Shown here one piece after another: positions 1 to 56,602 of a DNA stretch of 64,000 nt (positions are counted from its first letter, which is position 1; every line of letters starts with the position of its first letter). The DNA is from Acidobacteriota bacterium. GTDB lineage: Bacteria; Acidobacteriota; Terriglobia; Terriglobales; Acidobacteriaceae. The stretch covers positions 62,001 through 126,000 of the forward strand of contig JAJYVF010000010.1 in the NCBI GenBank assembly GCA_021792135.1, read 5' to 3'. A model generated the notes under the pieces. It made no database searches. It worked only from the letters and a program-made list of their open reading frames with translations, and was not told where the DNA came from. A program made the translations under genes and the position numbers.

Positions 1-498
1 CGGATCGTACTGGCTTTCCGGCGTCAGCCCGACCTTCTCCTTCTTGAAGCGGTCCATGATGTCCGACTCGGTAATCGAACTGATGCCCTTGTAATTGATC
101 TCGCGGATGGTCGGCTTCTCGCGCACATACACGTCCAGGATCACGCCCTGCGGCGTGTCTTCCTTCTCAATGCGGACGTCCTCGAAATAGCCCGTGTTCC
201 ACAGCGAATTGAAGTCGCGCTCCACCGTGAGCGGATCGTAGGGCTCGCCCACGTGGCTGAACATGCGGGCCAGGACCGTCTCCCGGGGGATCCGGCGGGT
301 ACCGATCACGCGGATCTGGATCACATTCTGCTGCTGGCCGGGCTCGGCGGAAGCCGCCGCAGGCAGAGCTTCCTGGGCGAACAGCGGTGCGGCCGGCAAT
401 ACAGGAGCCAGTACGAGAGCCAGAACCAGGGAGCGCCCGAAACAGCGGCGCAAATTCCTGCATGATACGTGCGGGGAGCCTGCGCTCCAGAAGTTCAC
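1..498 (-). CDS. bamA: BamA-like outer-membrane assembly protein, N-terminal part (runs off the window)
   Basis: Reading the minus strand from the right gives a hydrophobic signal-like stretch (SLVLALVLAPVLPAA), then a POTRA-type region with VIQIRVIGTRRIPRETVL, NTGYFEDVRIEKED and VYVREKPTIREINYKGI. This is the usual start of the BamA/Omp85 family, which inserts beta-barrel proteins into the outer membrane. The rest of the gene lies left of base 1. The start is uncertain: I placed it at a GTG (498), but an in-frame TTG at 453 lies just after AGGA. The ATG at 463 is in another frame and does not encode the POTRA sequence. Upstream (499-740) I see only a -10-like box and no gene. Family assignment is firm; the exact start is not. 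Confidence 0.75.
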   Translation of the reverse strand, partial: MNFWSAGSPHVSCRNLRRCFGRSLVLALVLAPVLPAAPLFAQEALPAAASAEPGQQQNVIQIRVIGTRRIPRETVLARMFSHVGEPYDPLTVERDFNSLWNTGYFEDVRIEKEDTPQGVILDVYVREKPTIREINYKGISSITESDIMDRFKKEKVGLTPESQYDP

Positions 499-45873: not shown

Positions 45874-45950
45874 CGGGACGTGGCTCAGCCTGGTAGAGCA
45901 CTCGCTTGGGGTGCGAGGGGTCGGCAGTTCAAATCTGCCCGTCCCGACCA
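45874..45950 (+). tRNA. tRNA-Pro (anticodon GGG)
   Basis: Acceptor stem CGGGACG / CGTCCCG with discriminator A and encoded CCA. D arm GCTC AGCCTGGTA GAGC. Anticodon stem CTCGC / GCGAG around TTGGGGT (anticodon GGG). T arm GGCAG TTCAAAT CTGCC. Its last about 63 bases are also the antisense coding 3' end of the serine recombinase gene, so the tRNA is the attachment site of the neighbouring element. Confidence 0.95.
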
Positions 45951-47378
45951 TTCTTCAGTTTTGACCCTCTTTGCAATCAGATCGAATGGCTTTCTGTAGG
46001 TGGGATAAAGACTTACGCCATCGATGGAGCAGTTCAAAAGTACTTTTCGGAGCAGGTCGGCCTGTTCCGCGGGTTTTCGCGTAAGGTACAGAAAATAGGC
46101 CTTGTTTGCGAGTTCTAAAATCCTTTTCGCATCCAGCAGCCGATCGGAGTCCGTAGTCTGATTCAGAGCGGTAATCTGCCCCTCAACCCGCAATTCTTCA
46201 GCGTGCCATTCGGCCCGTTTTCGGTTCCAGAATTCCTCTGTGATTTTCCCGTCGAGCTTGTCCTCGTAAGCCTGATCCATTCGCCGATGAATCGCCTCCA
46301 CGTCCCGTTCAAGACGAGCACGTATGCTTGCTGATTCCCGGGACAGTTTTTGCTGATCCTGCTGGAGCGAACTTTCGATGGTATGTATCACCTCGTCAGG
46401 GATGTGGACGTCCCTCAGTACGTCCCCCATACGTGCAGCGAGTTCCTCTTCCCGGAACCGGGGAAGATCGCAGGGACCCTTGTATCCGCTGCAACGGTAG
46501 TACACGTACTTTCCTTTTTTCACTTCTGCGGTGACGGTGCATCCGTCATGGGCACACGTGAGCATCTTTTTGAACGCGATTTGGTGCTTCCCGTACTTTC
46601 CTTTGCCCCCGCCGCGGATGAGGCGCTGGACGTCCTCGAACGTCCCCACAGAAATCAGCGGGACGTGCGTACCCCGGTACTGCTCTCCCCTCCACATGAA
46701 GAGGCCGATGTAAACCGGGTTCGTCAAGACGGTATGCAGGTACGCTCTGTTGATGTACGTCCCGAACTCTTTCCGAATTGTTTTCTGGAGAGTGCTCAGG
46801 GAGTACGTCCCGGTGACGTACCTCTCAAAAGCGAACTTCACAATCCGCGATTTCTCGGGGTGTACATCGATGTTCCGGGTCGTCCGGTTGTTCTGATACC
46901 CGTACGGGGCACGTCCGGGGTAGATGCCCTGTTCGGCCTTCTCCCGCATCCCCTTGATGACCTCTTCTCGCAGATTGTCGGAATAGAACTTCGAAGATAC
47001 GAGTTCGATACCGTGCATGAATTTCGTCTGCGCACGTGCGTCCTTCGAGAGGACAGATCCGGACTTGACGAAGATCACCTCCAAGTCCAGCTCATCCAGC
47101 AGTACCTGATCTTTGAAGTTGCGGGTCAGACGGTCTGTCTTCTCGACAAGAATCATGCGGCATTCATTTGAGCGACGGAAGAATTCGAGCATCTTCCCGA
47201 ACTCCTTTCGCCCTGTACTCTTCGCCGATTCGATATCGACAAACTCACGTGTGATTTCGATGCGATTCTTCTCCGCAAACGTGTGCAGCAGGCGCACCTG
47301 TGCATCAATCGAATATCCTTCCTGCTGCTGCTCGCGGCTCGATACACGCGCATAAAGAACGGCTGTGCGCACGCTCAT
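45885..47378 (-). CDS. Large serine recombinase (integrase)
   Basis: A protein of 497 aa. The resolvase-like catalytic domain (residues 1-145) begins VRTAVLYARVSSREQQQEGY with catalytic Ser13 and contains LVEKTDRLTRNFKDQVLLDE. The recombinase domain is at about 160-260 (APYGYQNNRTTRNIDVHPEK, AYLHTVLTNPVYIGLFMW), followed by a zinc ribbon (LTCAHDGCTV...YYRCSGYKGPC) and a coiled coil (about 330-410). The C-terminal end RADLNCRPLAPQASALPG is translated from the antisense of tRNA-Pro. It should integrate and excise the element, using the tRNA as attB. Serine integrases rarely overlap tRNA genes in this way. The ATG overlaps the previous gene by four bases. Confidence 0.92.
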   Translation of the reverse strand: MSVRTAVLYARVSSREQQQEGYSIDAQVRLLHTFAEKNRIEITREFVDIESAKSTGRKEFGKMLEFFRRSNECRMILVEKTDRLTRNFKDQVLLDELDLEVIFVKSGSVLSKDARAQTKFMHGIELVSSKFYSDNLREEVIKGMREKAEQGIYPGRAPYGYQNNRTTRNIDVHPEKSRIVKFAFERYVTGTYSLSTLQKTIRKEFGTYINRAYLHTVLTNPVYIGLFMWRGEQYRGTHVPLISVGTFEDVQRLIRGGGKGKYGKHQIAFKKMLTCAHDGCTVTAEVKKGKYVYYRCSGYKGPCDLPRFREEELAARMGDVLRDVHIPDEVIHTIESSLQQDQQKLSRESASIRARLERDVEAIHRRMDQAYEDKLDGKITEEFWNRKRAEWHAEELRVEGQITALNQTTDSDRLLDAKRILELANKAYFLYLTRKPAEQADLLRKVLLNCSIDGVSLYPTYRKPFDLIAKRVKTEEWSGRADLNCRPLAPQASALPG

Positions 47379-49406: not shown

Positions 49407-49964
49407 ATGGGGCGGTGGGATTTTGGCGGAGGCTCAGTGGACGAAAAGAGGCGCGAGGAGTTTGTCGTGGCCGTCGAGCAAATGGCGATACGGCTTGGGG
49501 CGAAGTCTTACGAAAAAGGACTGGACCAGGCGATCAGGTTGGTCTCGTGTCTGCTGCAGCTCATGGAGTCAATACGCACGAAAGAGGCATTGCGAACCGC
49601 ACTGGATTCCCTGGAAACGCCCACGAAGAGCGAAGAGCGGAAGATTCTCTTCGCTCTTCGCTATATGCCCCATTTCCTTCGGATTACCTCCGGGCTTGCC
49701 ATCACCAAATTTCTCACTCCTCTACCGGCATTTGCCCCAGGACGTCCGCAAAGAATGACCGCGGAAGAAGGCGAAAAGCTGCTCAATTTCATTAGCGGAC
49801 TGCATCGACAGGGCGTGCCGCTGGGTATCGCCAAGCAGCGGGCGGCAGCGCGTTTCCATTGCAGCGTTCGCACTGTCGAAAGGCTGTGGGGAGAGAGGGG
49901 AGAGCCCCGCGAGGATTGCGCGACTCCGGAGGAGATAAAAGAATGGATTTCTACGGAAATCTAA
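49407..49964 (+). CDS. HTH protein of unknown function next to the CRISPR locus
   Basis: A protein of 185 aa, start ATG with GGGAG 7 bases upstream. The N-terminal part is helical (VVAVEQMAIRLGAKSYEKGL, LVSCLLQLMESIRTKEALRT). The C-terminal region carries a helix-turn-helix: GIAKQRAAARFHCSVRTVER then LWGERGEP. It might be a regulator of the mobile element or of the adjacent cas9/tracrRNA region; nothing shows which. It ends 76 bases before the tracrRNA 3' hairpin. I do not recognise a family. Confidence 0.6.
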   Translation: MGRWDFGGGSVDEKRREEFVVAVEQMAIRLGAKSYEKGLDQAIRLVSCLLQLMESIRTKEALRTALDSLETPTKSEERKILFALRYMPHFLRITSGLAITKFLTPLPAFAPGRPQRMTAEEGEKLLNFISGLHRQGVPLGIAKQRAAARFHCSVRTVERLWGERGEPREDCATPEEIKEWISTEI

Positions 49965-50035
49965 GCCAGGAAAAGCACTTCTGGCTTGATTGGGAAAGAG
50001 GAATGTCTGTGGTCAACCACCGCAGTATTCGCAAA

Positions 50036-50141
50036 TACACGAACGCCCCGTTTCCGGGGCGTTCAACGGTTACGGATATCCGATACCGTACGACGAAAGC
50101 TTACTGAGAAACAGCCGAGCAATCGCCGCTCACGTACACTG
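50036..50141 (-). ncRNA. Predicted tracrRNA of the type II-C system
   Basis: Minus strand. The 5' part (50140-50121) is identical to 20 bases of the plus-strand repeat. The next 18 bases (50120-50103) match the rest of the repeat with a few changes and a short bulge. As RNA paired to a minus-strand crRNA, nearly all changed positions become G.U pairs, so the whole repeat can pair. Downstream come a nexus-like part with ACGGT/ACCGT arms (50066-50089) and a strong stem GAACGCCCC / GGGGCGTTC (50041-50064), followed by GTGTATTT, a probable 3' end. About 105 nt, divergent from cas9. A TTGACA/TAGAAA promoter sits immediately upstream. Prediction from sequence, not measured. Confidence 0.82.
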
Positions 50142-50148
50142 CTATACT
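50140..50148 (+). promoter_or_regulatory. Possible cas9 extended -10 element
   Basis: TGCTATACT on the plus strand, 44 bases before the cas9 ATG, fits an extended -10 (TGnTATAAT-like). No good -35 is present, as is common for extended -10 promoters. It overlaps the start of the tracrRNA and its -10. Confidence 0.45.
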
Positions 50149-50176
50149 TTCTACCTCCCCCAATCTGAAGTGTCAA
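50148..50176 (-). promoter_or_regulatory. tracrRNA promoter
   Basis: On the minus strand TTGACA (50171-50176), exactly 17 bases, TAGAAA (50148-50153). The expected start is 6-8 bases further, at about 50140-50142, the first base of the anti-repeat. The -35 lies 15 bases before the cas9 start codon. Confidence 0.65.
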
Positions 50177-50191
50177 TGGAAAGTTGGGGCC

Positions 50192-53100
50192 ATGGCGACC
50201 GACGGTGATGCTGCGCAGCGGTACGTGTTAGGAATTGACCTCGGCAGTGCCTCTTTGGGCTGGGCTGCAGTTCGGCTGGCGCACGACGGCACACCTTCGA
50301 CGCTCTTGCGTGCCGGAGTCCGCATCTTCGATCCGGCGGTTAGTGGTGACATTGAGAAAGGCCAGGATGAGTCCAATGCCGTAGCACGGCGGTCGGCCCG
50401 TCTCATTCGCAGGCAACTGCGCCGCAGGGTTGCACGCCAGCGGGAACTCTTTCGTTTGCTCCAGCACCATCACCTGTTGCCCCGCTATGAAGGCGTAGAA
50501 ACAAATGCATCGGAACAGCGCCATGCTGTATTGAATTCGCTGGACCGGGAAATCTCAGCCAAGTGGTCCACGGCTGAAGGTAACCAGGCGACTACCGCAA
50601 TCGAACTGCCGATGTACCTTCTGCGCAAATGCGCGCTCTACAACCCACTAGAGCCGTTTGAAATCGGGCGCATCCTCTATCACCTGAGCCAGCGCCGCGG
50701 CTACCGATCAAACAGAAAGGAAAAGGCTGGAAGGCAGGATAACTCCGCAAAGGAAAAGAAGAAGGATGACCTCGGCCAGGTCGAGGGGGAAATTGATGCC
50801 TTGGTACACGAAATGCGCCGTGCAGAAGCTCGCACTCTTGGCGAGTATTTCGCGTCCCTGAATCCACATGAGCAAAAGGTGCGGCGCCGCTGGGCCAGCC
50901 GAAAAATGTATGAAGATGAGTTTGCCGAAATCTGGCATAAGCAGGCGGCCTACCATCCGGAGATACTCACGGAGGAACTGCGCAGAGACATCAAGCACCT
51001 CCTCTTCTACCAGCGTCCCATTAAAGAGCAAGCGCACCTGATTGGCAGATGCGAACTGGAGCGCGACGAACGGCGCGCAGCCTGGGCAACGCTTGACGCC
51101 CAGCAGTTCCGTGTACTCCAGAAGCTGAATGACCTGGAACTCGTGTATCCGGGCCAAGTCGCCGGCGTGCGTCTCACGCCAGAACAGCGCCAGATTGTCA
51201 AGGAGTTGCTTCAAAACGCCGCTGAGGTTTCGTTCAAGAAGATCCGGAAAGCGCTTGGTCTGCCGGAAAATATAGGATTCAATCTCCAGAGAGGCGGTGA
51301 AACCCGTCTGAAGGGCAACCTTACAAACAGCCACATGGCCGAAGTATTTGGGCTCCATTGGGCCATGATGTCCGACGAGGAAAAGAAGCAGGTGGTTGAG
51401 GACTGGCGAACTATAGAACGCGAAGAGTCGCTCATCCGGCGAGCCATCGATCATTGGAAGCTGGATGACGCTGGCGCGAGATGCTTCGCGACGCGGCCTG
51501 CGCCAGCCGGATATTGTTCCCTCTCTCGAAAGGCGATCCGGAAACTGATGCCCCTGATGGAAGCGGGGAAGCGCTTCAAAGAGGCCGAAGCCGAACTATA
51601 CAGCAGTCGATTTTCCGGCGGACGCGTGCACGACCGCATTCCTCCTGTTCGACAGGTGCTCACGAGCCTGCGAAATCCAGCTATTGAGCGGGCGCTCACC
51701 GAACTCCGTAAGGTTGTGAACGCGCTCATTGGGCAATACGACAAGCCTGCCCAGATCCGAATTGAACTCGCGCGCGATCTAAAGGAGCCAAGAAAAGAGC
51801 GCGCACAGGCGGTACGAACGATTCGGGACCGCGAGAAAGAACGCAATACCGCAAAGGCGAAGCTGCTTCGAGAATGCGTCATTCACCATCCTTCTCGCCC
51901 CGACATCGAAAAGGCACTTCTGTGGGAGGAGTGCCAGGGAGAGTGCCCTTACACGGGCAGGAGATTCCCTTTCTCGTCGCTGTTTGGCCAGAATCCTCCC
52001 ATGCAGGTGGAACACATCATTCCCTTCAGCCGCATTCCTGACGACTCTTTCCAGAACAAGACGCTCTGTGCCGTCGAAGAGAACCAATACAAGACCAACC
52101 GCACGCCTTTTCAAGCCTATGGGGGAACGCCTCAATACGAAGAAATCCTGAATCGTGTGCGCAACTGGAAACGGCAGATTTACAGCGACAGCATGGTTCG
52201 GAACGACAAGCTAAAAGCCAAGGGAGACGGAAGGCTTGCGAATCCCGGCAAATTGCGGCGTTTCGAATTGCGAACCACTGAAGAGCTGGACGGGTTTAAG
52301 GACCGCCAATTGAACGATACGCGCTACGCAAGCAAGCTTGCCTGCGAGCTGGTCGGGACTCTCTACGGCGGGCGGGATGTGCAGCGTGACACAGGCGCTC
52401 AGCGCGTAGTCTACGCCTCATCGGGCATGGTAACCTGGAGGCTTCGCAAGAGCTGGGGTTTGGATGCCCTTCTTGGTGAGTCTGCACCATCCTCAAATGG
52501 GTCAAAGAGCGGGAAATCACGCGCCGATCACCGCCACCATGCAATAGATGCGATCACCATCGCTCTCAGCGAACCGAAGCTCATCGCGGCTCTGAGCCGA
52601 GCCAACTCGCAGGATCCCTATTGGCCGCAGAATGGCCACACGGCTCCCAGAATTCAGGCCCCCTGGCCAGATTTCGTGGCATCCATCCGGCCACACATCG
52701 AGCAGCTCCTGGTGTCGCACCGTCCAGAACATCGCCTCACGGGCGCATTGCATGATGCATCAAACTACGGCCGTCCGCGCCAGGAAAACGGCAAGGAAGT
52801 GGTACATATCCGAGTTCCGGTTGCCGGAAAGAACAAAGGAGAGGGGCTAACAGCGAAGGACATCGAAAGCATTGTTGATCCGGCAGTTCGCGAAGTTGTG
52901 CGAGCCAAAGCTGCGGAGTTTGGCGGTGATTTAAGGGATTGGACTCCAAACGCGGAGCGAGACGACTGGCCTCAGCTAAAGACGAGAACGGGCAGGACAA
53001 TCCCTATCAAACGTGTTCGCCTCAAGAAGAGCCTTGCCGTCGAGACAATCGCAAAAGGAAAAGCGAATGAGCGGCAAGTAGCCGCAAACAGCGTTCATCA

Positions 53101-53560
53101 TGTTGCGATTTTCGCGGCAAGAGATCACAAAGGCCGTGATAAGTGGATCAGCGATATCGTGACAATGCTGGAAGCTGCAAACAGGCTGGAAGAAGAGAGA
53201 CGCTTGTGCAAGCAGAATCCCAACCGCAAGCCCAAACCAATCGTTCGTGGCTGGCACAGTCAGGATGAAGAGGCTGAATTTCTCTTTTTTCTGATGAAGA
53301 AGGATACCGTCCGGATCACGGTCAAAGAACAACGCCGGGTGTATCTGGTCACGAGTTTCGAAGCCGATGGAAGAATCTCGCTGGTTCCGGTCAATGCCTC
53401 CGGAAAGCGCTCAGAACAAAGAGGTGCGAAAGAACAGGAATCGCCCGTCATGATTCGGGAAAGTCTGTCATCGCTCAAGGAGAGAAGTCCTGAGAAGGTT
53501 CTGATAGATACTTTAGGACGAGTTTTTCCTGTCCGAGACAACGTGCTGCTCAAGCCATGA
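50192..53560 (+). CDS. cas9: CRISPR-associated endonuclease Cas9 (type II-C)
   Basis: A protein of 1122 aa, the short-Cas9 size. RuvC-I is YVLGIDLGSASLGWAAVRL (Asp16); the Arg-rich bridge helix is RRSARLIRRQLRRRVARQRE; RuvC-II is IRIELARDLK (Glu525). The HNH domain has CPYTGRRFPFSSL, then QVEHIIPFSRIPDDSFQNKT with His608, Asn622 and Asn631. RuvC-III is HRHHAIDAITIAL (His782/783, Asp786). All nuclease residues are present, so it should be active. The HNH dyad reads Glu-His rather than Asp-His. The C-terminal PAM-interacting part starts at about residue 890. cas1 overlaps its stop by four bases; no csn2 or cas4 follows, which defines II-C. Confidence 0.96.
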   Translation: MATDGDAAQRYVLGIDLGSASLGWAAVRLAHDGTPSTLLRAGVRIFDPAVSGDIEKGQDESNAVARRSARLIRRQLRRRVARQRELFRLLQHHHLLPRYEGVETNASEQRHAVLNSLDREISAKWSTAEGNQATTAIELPMYLLRKCALYNPLEPFEIGRILYHLSQRRGYRSNRKEKAGRQDNSAKEKKKDDLGQVEGEIDALVHEMRRAEARTLGEYFASLNPHEQKVRRRWASRKMYEDEFAEIWHKQAAYHPEILTEELRRDIKHLLFYQRPIKEQAHLIGRCELERDERRAAWATLDAQQFRVLQKLNDLELVYPGQVAGVRLTPEQRQIVKELLQNAAEVSFKKIRKALGLPENIGFNLQRGGETRLKGNLTNSHMAEVFGLHWAMMSDEEKKQVVEDWRTIEREESLIRRAIDHWKLDDAGARCFATRPAPAGYCSLSRKAIRKLMPLMEAGKRFKEAEAELYSSRFSGGRVHDRIPPVRQVLTSLRNPAIERALTELRKVVNALIGQYDKPAQIRIELARDLKEPRKERAQAVRTIRDREKERNTAKAKLLRECVIHHPSRPDIEKALLWEECQGECPYTGRRFPFSSLFGQNPPMQVEHIIPFSRIPDDSFQNKTLCAVEENQYKTNRTPFQAYGGTPQYEEILNRVRNWKRQIYSDSMVRNDKLKAKGDGRLANPGKLRRFELRTTEELDGFKDRQLNDTRYASKLACELVGTLYGGRDVQRDTGAQRVVYASSGMVTWRLRKSWGLDALLGESAPSSNGSKSGKSRADHRHHAIDAITIALSEPKLIAALSRANSQDPYWPQNGHTAPRIQAPWPDFVASIRPHIEQLLVSHRPEHRLTGALHDASNYGRPRQENGKEVVHIRVPVAGKNKGEGLTAKDIESIVDPAVREVVRAKAAEFGGDLRDWTPNAERDDWPQLKTRTGRTIPIKRVRLKKSLAVETIAKGKANERQVAANSVHHVAIFAARDHKGRDKWISDIVTMLEAANRLEEERRLCKQNPNRKPKPIVRGWHSQDEEAEFLFFLMKKDTVRITVKEQRRVYLVTSFEADGRISLVPVNASGKRSEQRGAKEQESPVMIRESLSSLKERSPEKVLIDTLGRVFPVRDNVLLKP

Positions 53561-54507
53561 GTGATCGCATTCTGGAAATCGCCAGCCCCGCACACCTCCA
53601 CGTCAAAGACTCGCAACTCGTCATCGAACGCAATGAGTTCCTCCCCTTCCAGACTCCGGTAAGCGGAATCAGCACACTGCTGCTTGCGCATCCGCAGGTT
53701 ACTCTCACTCAGGCCGTAGTCTCTCGATTGGCCGAGGCTGGGGCCATGATCGTGGCTATCGATGGCCATTATCTGCCCGCCGCAATCACGCTCCCTCTGC
53801 AGACTCACAGCCTACAGACCGAGCGGCTCGGACTACAGGTAGCGCTAAAGCCCGTCTCTCGCAAGCGCCTCTGGCGGCAGATTGTGCAGGCGAAGATCCG
53901 TGCTCAAGGTCATCTTCTCAAGGAGCTATACGGCTGCGATGGCGGCCTTTTGGCCGCTGCCGCCCGAGTTCGCTCCGGCGATCCGGACAATATCGAGGCT
54001 CAGACCGCTCGTCGATATTGGAGGCTCCTCTTCCCCGACACCAGATTCCGCCGGGGTGCGGACCCGCTGGATTGCGGGGCGGATCAAAACAGACATCTTG
54101 ATTACGGGTACACAGTTTTGCGTGCATCCGTCGCTCGCGCTATCGCGGCGGCGGGTTTGCATCCATCTATCGGCCTGCGTCACCACAATCGCTACGACCC
54201 GTTTTGCTTTGCTGCTGATCTGATGGAGCCTTTTCGTGCTTTGATTGACTGGCGCGTTGTCGCATGGATAAAGGAGCACGATCCGGCTGCGCCCCTCGAC
54301 ACTTCCGCCAAGAAATGGCTCATTCAGGCCGTCACCATGCGATATTGCGACAACCGGGAAGAGCGGGCGTTATCCGACATTCTGTTCCGCTTAACGTGTT
54401 CCTTTGCGGCGGTGCTCGGCGGCAGCAAAGAGAAACTTGATCTCCCCGAGGTCTTGACGCCGTGCCCAGACGATTTGATCTCTCGGCTTACAGGTGTATG
54501 TGGCTAA
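53557..54507 (+). CDS. cas1: CRISPR-associated protein Cas1
   Basis: A protein of 316 aa, the integrase subunit for spacer acquisition. The N-terminal beta domain has LHVKDSQLVIERNEFLPFQT; the helical domain has Glu147 in DPDNIEAQTARRYWRLLF, the His in GLHPSIGLRHHNRYDPFCFA (His209/210), and Asp221 and Glu224 in AADLMEPFRALID. All metal ligands are present. ATGA overlap with cas9; cas2 overlaps its own 3' end. Confidence 0.95.
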   Translation: MSDRILEIASPAHLHVKDSQLVIERNEFLPFQTPVSGISTLLLAHPQVTLTQAVVSRLAEAGAMIVAIDGHYLPAAITLPLQTHSLQTERLGLQVALKPVSRKRLWRQIVQAKIRAQGHLLKELYGCDGGLLAAAARVRSGDPDNIEAQTARRYWRLLFPDTRFRRGADPLDCGADQNRHLDYGYTVLRASVARAIAAAGLHPSIGLRHHNRYDPFCFAADLMEPFRALIDWRVVAWIKEHDPAAPLDTSAKKWLIQAVTMRYCDNREERALSDILFRLTCSFAAVLGGSKEKLDLPEVLTPCPDDLISRLTGVCG

Positions 54508-54803
54508 TTGCCATGTTCGACCTGCCCGTGGAAACCACGGAAAATCGGCGCGACTACACGCGATTTCGCAAAGCTCTGCTTAAAGACGGGTTCATGATGC
54601 TGCAGTATTCCGTCTACGCCCGATTCATTCCCAGTGAAGAGGCAGCCGAGGCCCATCGCAGGACCGTCAAGGCATGCATTCCGCCAAGAGGTCAGGTTCG
54701 GTTAATGGCAATAACAGATCACCAGTTTGCAAAAATGGAAGTCTTTTATGGCAGAAAACCACGCGACCCCGAGGACGTACCCGAGCAGGTTCTGCTTTTC
54801 TGA
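54462..54803 (+). CDS. cas2: CRISPR-associated protein Cas2
   Basis: A protein of 113 aa. YRCMWLIAMFDLPVETTENR is the Cas2 beta1 strand with the conserved Asp; MMLQYSVYARFIPSEEAAEA and VRLMAITDHQFAKMEVFYGR complete the ferredoxin-like fold. I start at GTG 54462 (GAGGT upstream), because II-C Cas2 proteins usually have about ten residues before YR.MW; ATG 54498 is the alternative. It overlaps cas1 by 46 bases and is followed after 8 bases by a long hairpin and then the array. Confidence 0.93.
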   Translation: MPRRFDLSAYRCMWLIAMFDLPVETTENRRDYTRFRKALLKDGFMMLQYSVYARFIPSEEAAEAHRRTVKACIPPRGQVRLMAITDHQFAKMEVFYGRKPRDPEDVPEQVLLF

Positions 54804-54811
54804 GCAAAGGA

Positions 54812-54853
54812 GGCCGCCCAGAACCTAGCTGATTTCAGCAAGTTCCGGGCGCC
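54812..54853. terminator. Long hairpin between cas2 and the array, probable bidirectional terminator
   Basis: GGCCGCCCAGAACCTAGCTGA pairs with TCAGC AA GTTC C GGGC GCC (loop TT) with small internal loops. There is no T-run on either side. It fills the gap between the cas operon (reading right) and the array, which is predicted to read left, where a two-way stop is needed. Confidence 0.5.
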
Positions 54854-54855
54854 CT

Positions 54856-56602
54856 AGTGTACGTGAGCGGCGATTCCCGGCCATCCCCAGCTAGACGCCT
54901 TTACGGCCTATATCGGGCCGCAGTGTACGTGAGCGGCGATTCCCGGCCATCCCCAGCGAAGGGCGCGGAGAGCATCCTTGAAGAGGAAGTGTACGTGAGC
55001 GGCGATTCCCGGCCATCCCCAGCCCAGGACAGTAGCTTATGCGCAACGATTCCAGTGTACGTGAGCGGCGATTCCCGGCCATCCCCAGCTGGCACAGGCG
55101 CGGCCCGCATCCTCCAGGAAGTGTACGTGAGCGGCGATTCCCGGCCATCCCCAGCTGAAGGTAAAAGGCTCCTTCGCGCTCCAGAAGTGTACGTGAGCGG
55201 CGATTCCCGGCCATCCCCAGCATACTAGAGGCATTTATGCGCCTATGGCAGAGTGTACGTGAGCGGCGATTCCCGGCCATCCCCAGCGTACACGGACACG
55301 CTGATATCTGGTATTCAGTGTACGTGAGCGGCGATTCCCGGCCATCCCCAGCGTAAACGTTGGATTGGAGGAAGGCGCTTTAAGTGTACGTGAGCGGCGA
55401 TTCCCGGCCATCCCCAGCCGCCTGTTGCGGTTCGGAGGGCAGTCGATGAGTGTACGTGAGCGGCGATTCCCGGCCATCCCCAGCAGGCCAGCAGGGCGTA
55501 CCTGCAGCAGCATAGTGTACGTGAGCGGCGATTCCCGGCCATCCCCAGCCCTCTGGAAGAGCTTGGAAGAGTGGGACAAAGTGTACGTGAGCGGCGATTC
55601 CCGGCCATCCCCAGCAAAGAGACTGAACAGCCAAGTCTTTTCGCAGTGTACGTGAGCGGCGATTCCCGGCCATCCCCAGCAGGCGCTCATCGCTCCTTCT
55701 GCTCCTTTCCAGTGTACGTGAGCGGCGATTCCCGGCCATCCCCAGCTGGCAACCCAGCGATATATCATCGCTGATGAGTGTACGTGAGCGGCGATTCCCG
55801 GCCATCCCCAGCGACCATCGAGCAGTCGCCGGGAAATCAATAAGTGTACGTGAGCGGCGATTCCCGGCCATCCCCAGCCGGGATCCCGCCGTCCTGCTGC
55901 AGGTAGAAGTGTACGTGAGCGGCGATTCCCGGCCATCCCCAGCTCTTTCCGCGCAGGACGGCACCGCTCAGGAAGTGTACGTGAGCGGCGATTCCCGGCC
56001 ATCCCCAGCCGAACGATTGCGCGCTCTTTGCGGCGGACGAGTGTACGTGAGCGGCGATTCCCGGCCATCCCCAGCCAACTGTTGACATTGCTGTTAACAT
56101 TTTGCAGTGTACGTGAGCGGCGATTCCCGGCCATCCCCAGCCGTGGCCTTCATGCGCACCGACGGCAATCTAGTGTACGTGAGCGGCGATTCCCGGCCAT
56201 CCCCAGCGCCTGCGAAGGCGAATTCTGCTCTCCGCAAAGTGTACGTGAGCGGCGATTCCCGGCCATCCCCAGCCCAACACCGCTTACGCCGCCTATGACG
56301 TGTAGTGTACGTGAGCGGCGATTCCCGGCCATCCCCAGCCAGATGACCTGGAGGGTGCTGCGCGGCGGAAGTGTACGTGAGCGGCGATTCCCGGCCATCC
56401 CCAGCATAAACGTAAGCATGGTGTCTTTCCTCTTTAGTGTACGTGAGCGGCGATTCCCGGCCATCCCCAGCGCAAGTGAATACGCCTGGAGTGTGCCGTT
56501 AGTGTACGTGAGCGGCGATTCCCGGCCATCCCCAGCGTAATCGCACCAATGAAATGCAAGCCCTGAAGTGTACGTGAGCGGCGATTCCCGGCCATCCCCA
56601 GC
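54856..56602 (-). CRISPR. CRISPR array, 27 repeats of 36 bp, 26 spacers
   Basis: On the plus strand each repeat begins AGTGTACGTGAGCGGCGATT and ends CATCCCCAGC. I counted 27 starts, from 54856 to 56567; all copies look identical. Spacers are 30 bp (21) or 29 bp (five: after repeats 7, 10, 12, 16 and 25). The predicted crRNA strand is minus, where the repeat reads GCTGGGGATG...CGTACACT: it then looks like other II-C repeats and pairs with the tracrRNA. On that reading the leader and the newest spacers are at the right end (near 56.6 kb). The repeat end TACACT resembles a -10 and may act as an internal promoter, as known in some II-C arrays, but no -35 is seen. Confidence 0.97.

What the first reader, a model, noticed from the sequence alone, without database searches (positions are those of the whole stretch)
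50103..50140. tracrRNA anti-repeat whose G.U pattern fixes the strand of tracrRNA and crRNA
Seen: 20 bases identical to the plus-strand repeat plus 18 diverged bases covering the rest of it. Writing the minus-strand RNA (GCUCGGCUGUUUCUCAGU) against the crRNA 5' end (GCUGGGGAUGGCCGGG), the changed positions I could align all become G.U pairs, with one extra base as a bulge. On the opposite strands the same changes would be A.C mismatches. So drift has been filtered for pairing, which argues for a live tracrRNA read on the minus strand and an array read on the minus strand. Known: II-C tracrRNAs pair with the full repeat. Inference: natural selection kept this duplex.
Basis: partly seen in the sequence, partly recalled or inferred. 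Interest (0 to 1): 0.8.

Follow-up and report, generated by a model that had tools for sequence, protein, structure and literature searches.

The report
Cas9 helper RNA beside cas9
The short sequence just upstream of the cas9 gene is very probably the gene for the helper RNA (tracrRNA) of an ordinary type II-C CRISPR-Cas9 system in an Acidobacterium; comparison with relatives supports which strand is read, and the system itself is of a known kind.

Summary
Minus strand 50140-50103 is an anti-repeat: 20 bases identical to the plus-strand repeat, then 18 diverged bases. Folding pairs all 36 crRNA repeat bases with it (6 G.U, two bulges, not one): -61.5 kcal/mol, against -47.7 on the opposite strands. 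No other copy was found in the genome. From this locus alone the G.U strand argument is weak (P 0.004-0.04). Relatives make it strong. 37 of 43 loci have an anti-repeat by motif upstream of cas9; 30 of these 37 have minus-strand TTGAC 27-32 bases before it, and hairpin exits are T-richer on minus in 34 of 37. Repeat and anti-repeat change together: 72 of 76 double changes end paired, against 4-6 of 8-14 in slid controls. Correction: much of the G.U pattern is inherited, not filtered drift. crRNA positions 1, 7 and 10 are G.U in 31, 32 and 21 of 33 loci; wobble gains by lineage favour minus only 26 to 9. Verdict: a type II-C-like tracrRNA, well supported by sequence, no expression data, modest interest.

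The parts
50171..50176 (-). Predicted -35 box TTGACA of the tracrRNA promoter (inference)
   Evidence: Minus-strand TTGAC 27-32 nt upstream of the anti-repeat in 30 of 37 loci; coordinates. The single-sequence promoter scan found no site in 49900-50300.
50148..50153 (-). Predicted -10 box TAGAAA, 17 nt from the -35; weak match (inference)
   Evidence: Position; some relatives carry better boxes at or near this place.
50103..50140 (-). tracrRNA anti-repeat; transcript start at about 50140 is inferred
   Evidence: pairs with all 36 bases of the crRNA repeat.
50066..50102 (-). tracrRNA linker and first hairpin (nexus-like)
   Evidence: Alignment A2 of 13 loci chosen from those with a tracrRNA, and its consensus fold: 7 of 16 predicted pairs over both hairpins have a change on both sides that keeps the pair.
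50040..50065 (-). Terminator-like hairpin of the tracrRNA with a T-rich exit
   Evidence: exit T-richer on minus than on plus in 34 of 37 loci, the reverse in 1.
50192..53560 (+). cas9, 1122 aa, RuvC and HNH motifs present
   Evidence: TIGR01865 E 4.8e-193; HNH_4, RuvC_III; motif positions.
53557..54507 (+). cas1, type II
   Evidence: TIGR03639 E 3.3e-63; PADLOC Cas1_II.
54462..54803 (+). cas2, type II
   Evidence: TIGR01573; PADLOC Cas2_II.
54811..54855 (.). Hairpin abutting the cas2-side repeat (leader junction; 3' end of a minus-strand array transcript)
   Evidence: Fold z -5.4 for the window; z below -2 in 28 of 29 loci, window included, against mononucleotide shuffles.
54856..56602 (-). 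CRISPR array, 27 identical 36-nt repeats, spacers 29-30 nt; inferred to be read on the minus strand
   Evidence: the strand is inferred from the tracrRNA strand.

Best explanation
50140 to about 50035 on the minus strand is the tracrRNA gene of a type II-C-like CRISPR-Cas9 locus (tracrRNA, cas9, cas1, cas2, array). RNA polymerase starts near 50140 from a promoter in the gap between the anti-repeat and cas9, runs away from cas9 and stops at the hairpin 50065-50040. The array is read on the minus strand, towards the cas genes. The anti-repeat pairs with the whole 36-nt repeat in the crRNA; the Cas9-side half is rich in G.U at fixed positions, and the far half is almost all Watson-Crick. The duplex is presumably trimmed and loaded into Cas9, which cuts DNA matching the spacer. 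Shown by computation: sequence, pairing, conservation, covariation, position of a promoter-like box and a terminator-like hairpin in relatives. Inferred: transcription, processing, cleavage.
For: Minus/minus duplex more stable than plus/plus in 33 of 33 loci, mean difference 10.2 kcal/mol. For its own repeat, a locus's own anti-repeat ranks first of 33 in 21 of 33 loci and at worst 7th; the window ranks 3rd. On a Cas9 tree of 33 loci, 72 of 76 double changes end paired; slid controls 4-6 of 8-14; of all 179 inferred changes 137 end paired on minus, 115 on plus. Minus-strand TTGAC at 27-32 nt upstream in 30 of 37. Hairpin exit T-richer on minus in 34, on plus in 1, of 37. Hairpins with compensatory changes in 13 loci. 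cas9, cas1, cas2 frames open. Of 40 loci with usable DNA upstream of cas9, 37 have the anti-repeat by motif and 2 more (L072, L084) by eye.
Against: No expression data. The window's own -10 box is weak and the automatic promoter scan found nothing. The terminator's T run is interrupted (TGTATTTGC), and a second terminator-like site lies inside the anti-repeat itself (2 sites found, 0.5 expected). Folded alone, part of the anti-repeat pairs within the tracrRNA. No protospacer was found to check the array strand. The window's own array has no degenerate repeat at either end. In 12 of 33 loci the own anti-repeat is not the best partner. 7 of 37 loci lack TTGAC at the expected place. L095 gave no motif-matching anti-repeat.
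Confidence: 0.94

Rival explanations
1. The same pair read on the plus strands: a plus-strand tracrRNA upstream of cas9 and a plus-strand array.
For: The 20-base half pairs perfectly either way: -47.7 kcal/mol over the whole plus/plus pair.
Against: Minus/minus is more stable in 33 of 33. A plus-strand tracrRNA would need its tail in the 51-base gap and the cas9 start, where the scan found no plus-strand terminator. Downstream hairpin exits favour minus 34 to 1 in 37; TTGAC is on minus in 30 of 37.
Confidence: 0.03
2. A stray repeat copy or decaying relic that is not transcribed.
For: The weak -10 box and imperfect T run of the window copy.
Against: The element is present in 39 of 40 loci with usable upstream DNA, covaries with the repeat, and the array has 27 exact repeats beside open cas genes.
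Confidence: 0.02
3. An added role, not exclusive of the first: the anti-repeat DNA doubles as the cas9 promoter, since its plus strand ends in TACACT, a -10-like box pointing at cas9.
For: 25 of 33 anti-repeats end in TACACT on the cas9-facing strand.
Against: The last T, recalled as a key base of a -10 box, is lost in 5 of 33; conservation of TACACT is already asked for by pairing; no plus-strand promoter was found by the scan of 49900-50300.
Confidence: 0.1

Closest known systems
Type II-C CRISPR-Cas9 tracrRNAs (Neisseria, Campylobacter and relatives)
   Same: Gene set cas9-cas1-cas2; array opposite to the cas operon (PMC3936727, passages seen); spacer gain at the last repeat, oldest repeat mutated (PMC12080349, abstract, passages and part 1 of Results seen).
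   Different: G.U at crRNA positions 1, 7, 10 in most of 33 loci; whether positions 7 and 10 are wobbles in other II-C groups was not tested. A promoter inside the repeat was not shown here.
CRISPRCas_38, a II-C tracrRNA model mostly from Bacteroidetes (PMC9067536, passages seen)
   Same: tracrRNA typically within 100 bases upstream of cas9, found only in II-C.
   Different: Another phylum; the models were not compared here.
Rfam RNA families (release 15)
   Same: Nothing.
   Different: No tracrRNA match in 49900-50300 up to E 1; only a chance-level Spot_42 hit, 18.2 bits against a cut-off of 80, E 0.42.

Membership tests
Type II CRISPR-Cas | Cas9 with RuvC and HNH domains | tested here: met
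   TIGR01865 E 4.8e-193, HNH_4, RuvC_III; motifs at residues 14, 522, 606, 782 (their roles are recalled).
Type II CRISPR-Cas | tracrRNA with an anti-repeat outside the array | tested here: met
   By sequence. Expression not tested.
Type II-C | Only cas9, cas1, cas2; no csn2 or cas4 | tested here: met
   cas2 ends 52 bases before the array; of 7 proteins scanned only cas9, cas1, cas2 matched PADLOC. Other genes of the window and genome were not scanned.
Type II-C | Array read opposite to the cas operon | tested here: met
   By sequence prediction only: follows from the tracrRNA strand.
Type II-C | New spacers enter at the last repeat (cas2 side here); oldest repeat degenerate | tested here: inconclusive
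   At least one of the three far-end repeats differs from consensus in 9 of 29 arrays, near-end in 0 of 29 (24 against 0 mismatches); the window's own array shows none, and 9 of the 29 arrays end within 70 nt of the end of the stretch held.
Type II-C | Promoter inside each repeat | tested here: inconclusive
   The repeat ends in TACACT on the crRNA strand in 29 of 33 loci, preceded by TGN in 8 of 33, not in the window.
Type II-C | Cas9 falls in the II-C branch of the Cas9 tree | not tested
   No reference II-A/B/C Cas9 was in the tree. Best solved-structure match is 6jdq, E 5.3e-67, recalled as Neisseria Cas9.
Type II-C | crRNA and tracrRNA are expressed and guide cutting | not testable with these tools
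   Needs RNA-seq and a cleavage assay.

The most novel reading that the evidence does not exclude
The anti-repeat evolves as two halves. The Cas9-side half keeps a fixed wobble signature (G.U at 1, 7, 10). The far half is kept identical to the local repeat by being overwritten from the array (gene conversion) rather than by slow compensatory mutation. In repeat positions 1-15 (plus-strand numbering), 31 double changes were inferred, 15 of them transversions that cannot pass directly through G.U, against 21 single-sided changes, and 478 of 495 tip cells match exactly. Close pairs such as L013 and L014 differ at position 8 in both partners. Against it: L061/L062 and L077/L085 differ in the repeat but not in the anti-repeat there, so one-sided steps do occur, and long branches could hide ordinary stepwise compensation.
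Probability: 0.15. Interest if true: 0.6.

Novelty: new member of a known kind. Interest (0 to 1): 0.3.

Why it matters
It predicts the strand of both guide RNAs for a group of Acidobacterial Cas9s, which is what one needs to build a guide RNA and test the enzyme. It also gives a 33-locus set in which repeat and anti-repeat covary, so one can ask which wobble pairs Cas9 needs and how the two sequences stay matched while both change. In the held library no paper had all of the terms tracrRNA, Acidobacteri-, Cas9 and anti-repeat, and of 112 papers with 3 of 4 looser terms none of the 15 listed held Acidobacteri-; the library lacks most subscription journals.

Tried and rejected
Anti-repeat as cas9 promoter: weakened, the last T is lost in 5 of 33. 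Protospacers to fix the array strand by PAM: none in phages; in 12 genomes of the genus, besides the array and the anti-repeat themselves, one 27-base match at E 0.005 in G097, not followed up; plasmids and viral contigs were not searched. Rfam: no tracrRNA hit. Single-sequence promoter scan: nothing. The first tracrRNA alignment A1 had wrong coordinates for L093, so it was not used; A2 replaced it. A first motif search was too strict and found an anti-repeat in 6 loci; corrected. The pooled substitution count in 32 loci, 122 to 17 with 56 transversions, was set aside as inflated by shared ancestry.

Rows dropped. Of 57 genomes with a Cas9 match (own genome included), 40 besides the own one were fetched for comparison; 16 were not, most with short, split or weak matches (G139, G152, G198, G217, G239, G316, G359, G360, G414, G502, G517, G660, G742, G781, G790, G836). 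Of the 43 loci compared, 6 gave no anti-repeat by motif (L069 and L089 begin at cas9, L074 is truncated, L072, L084, L095). Of the 37 that did, 4 had no repeat to pair with (L068, L080, L083, L093), leaving 33, among them L063 with a lone degenerate repeat. L015 was not used; by its length it appears to be the same contig as L093.

Full report
What is there. The window holds cas9 (50192-53560), cas1 (53557-54507) and cas2 (54462-54803), all plus strand, then an array of 27 exact 36-nt repeats at 54856-56602. Upstream of cas9, the minus strand of 50140-50121 equals the first 20 bases of the plus-strand repeat and 50120-50103 is a diverged continuation. In the 5.1-Mb genome the 20-mer, up to 3 mismatches, occurs only in the 27 repeats and here; the 107-nt region has no second copy.

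Pairing. With both RNAs from the minus strand, the minimum-energy duplex pairs all 36 crRNA repeat bases: 30 Watson-Crick and 6 G.U (positions 1, 6, 7, 9, 10, 15), with two bulged tracrRNA bases, -61.5 kcal/mol; with both from the plus strand it is -47.7. For the diverged half alone it is -21.0 against -8.8. Random mutation of a perfect complement (7 substitutions, 2 insertions, 5000 trials per model) gives so stable a half in 3.6%, 4.8% and 5.9%, and so large a strand difference in 0.4%, 1.5% and 3.9%, for no, two-thirds and full transition bias. One locus therefore only suggests the strand.

Relatives. Cas9 searches found matches in 8 of 150 genomes drawn from the family, 43 of 399 from the class and 18 of 396 from the phylum, the own genome counted each time and the draws overlapping. 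An anti-repeat on the strand opposite to cas9 was found in 37 of 43 by motif, 40-205 bases before the start of the cas9 match. Of the six misses, L069 and L089 begin at cas9, L074 is truncated, L072 and L084 have one by eye, L095 is unclear.

Strand evidence from relatives. A minus-strand TTGAC lies 27-32 nt upstream of the anti-repeat in 30 of 37 loci, the window included; the -10 boxes are variable and the window's is weak. The best hairpin downstream has a T-richer exit on the minus than on the plus strand in 34 of 37, the reverse in 1, no difference in 2. In 13 chosen loci the tracrRNA tail folds into two hairpins, with compensatory changes at 7 of 16 predicted pairs. Testing both directions by fold and terminator is a published way to orient tracrRNAs (PMC7606464, passages seen).

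Covariation. 33 loci had both repeat and anti-repeat. Minus/minus beats plus/plus in 33 of 33; a repeat's own anti-repeat ranks first of 33 in 21 loci and at worst 7th, the window 3rd. On a Cas9 tree, with an alignment blind to G.U, 179 changes were inferred; 137 end paired on minus and 115 on plus. 76 are double changes, 72 of them ending paired; controls slid by 1-3 positions gave 8-14 double changes, 4-6 ending paired. From a Watson-Crick pair, 26 changes lead to a wobble that pairs on minus, 9 to one that pairs on plus, and 23 to a mismatch; 26 against 9 gives binomial P 0.017 against site numbers, treating events as independent. The raw tip count in 32 loci, 122 to 17 with 56 transversions, is inflated by shared ancestry.

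The G.U pairs at crRNA positions 1, 7 and 10 recur in 31, 32 and 21 of 33 loci. They look like inherited positions. The first-pair G.U is known: one paper reports it for the vast majority of II-A dual guides, citing Faure et al. 2019, and notes repeat-tracrRNA co-evolution (PMC6882279, passages seen; Faure et al. not seen). In crRNA positions 1-18, 131 of 594 cells are G.U, in positions 19-36, 8 of 594.

Array direction. In 9 of 29 arrays at least one of the three repeats farthest from cas2 differs from the consensus, in 0 of 29 one of the three nearest (24 against 0 mismatches); 9 of the 29 arrays end within 70 nt of the end of the stretch held. The leader end is thus probably the cas2 side, and a minus-strand transcript would run towards it. 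This is the published II-C layout: array opposite to the cas operon (PMC3936727, passages), spacers gained at the last repeat, oldest repeat mutated (PMC12080349, passages and part 1 of Results). The window's own array has no degenerate end, so for it this is by analogy.

Limits. Nothing here shows transcription or activity. The Cas9 was not placed in a tree with reference II-A, II-B and II-C proteins. The window's -10 box and T run are weak. The filing as II-C rests on gene content and layout.

Noticed in passing
54811-54855 in the window, and the same place in other loci: A strong hairpin directly abuts the cas2-side repeat; the sequence varies, the structure stays (z below -2 in 28 of 29 loci, window included, mononucleotide shuffles). 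It may end array transcripts before they run antisense into the cas operon. The part of a II-C study read here looked at hairpins upstream of the array, the other side (PMC12080349).
   Followed up: partly
L096 3547 and 3920 (coordinates in cas9 orientation): Two anti-repeats 373 bases apart upstream of cas9, with different tails: two tracrRNA genes or a duplication.
   Followed up: partly
45874-45950 and 45885-47378: The 3' end of a serine recombinase gene overlaps a tRNA-Pro gene, as at the edge of an element integrated at a tRNA; the tracrRNA lies about 2.7 kb beyond it. The other end was not sought.
   Followed up: no
L006 1501-4731 (G008) and L041 1501-4605 (G724): The cas9 matches of these two relatives were reported with one in-frame stop each; where the stop lies was not looked up.
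   Followed up: no
L063, about 7693 (cas9 orientation): The array finder found no array in this locus; a lone degenerate repeat lies about 180 bases after the cas9 match. cas1 and cas2 were not sought there.
   Followed up: no
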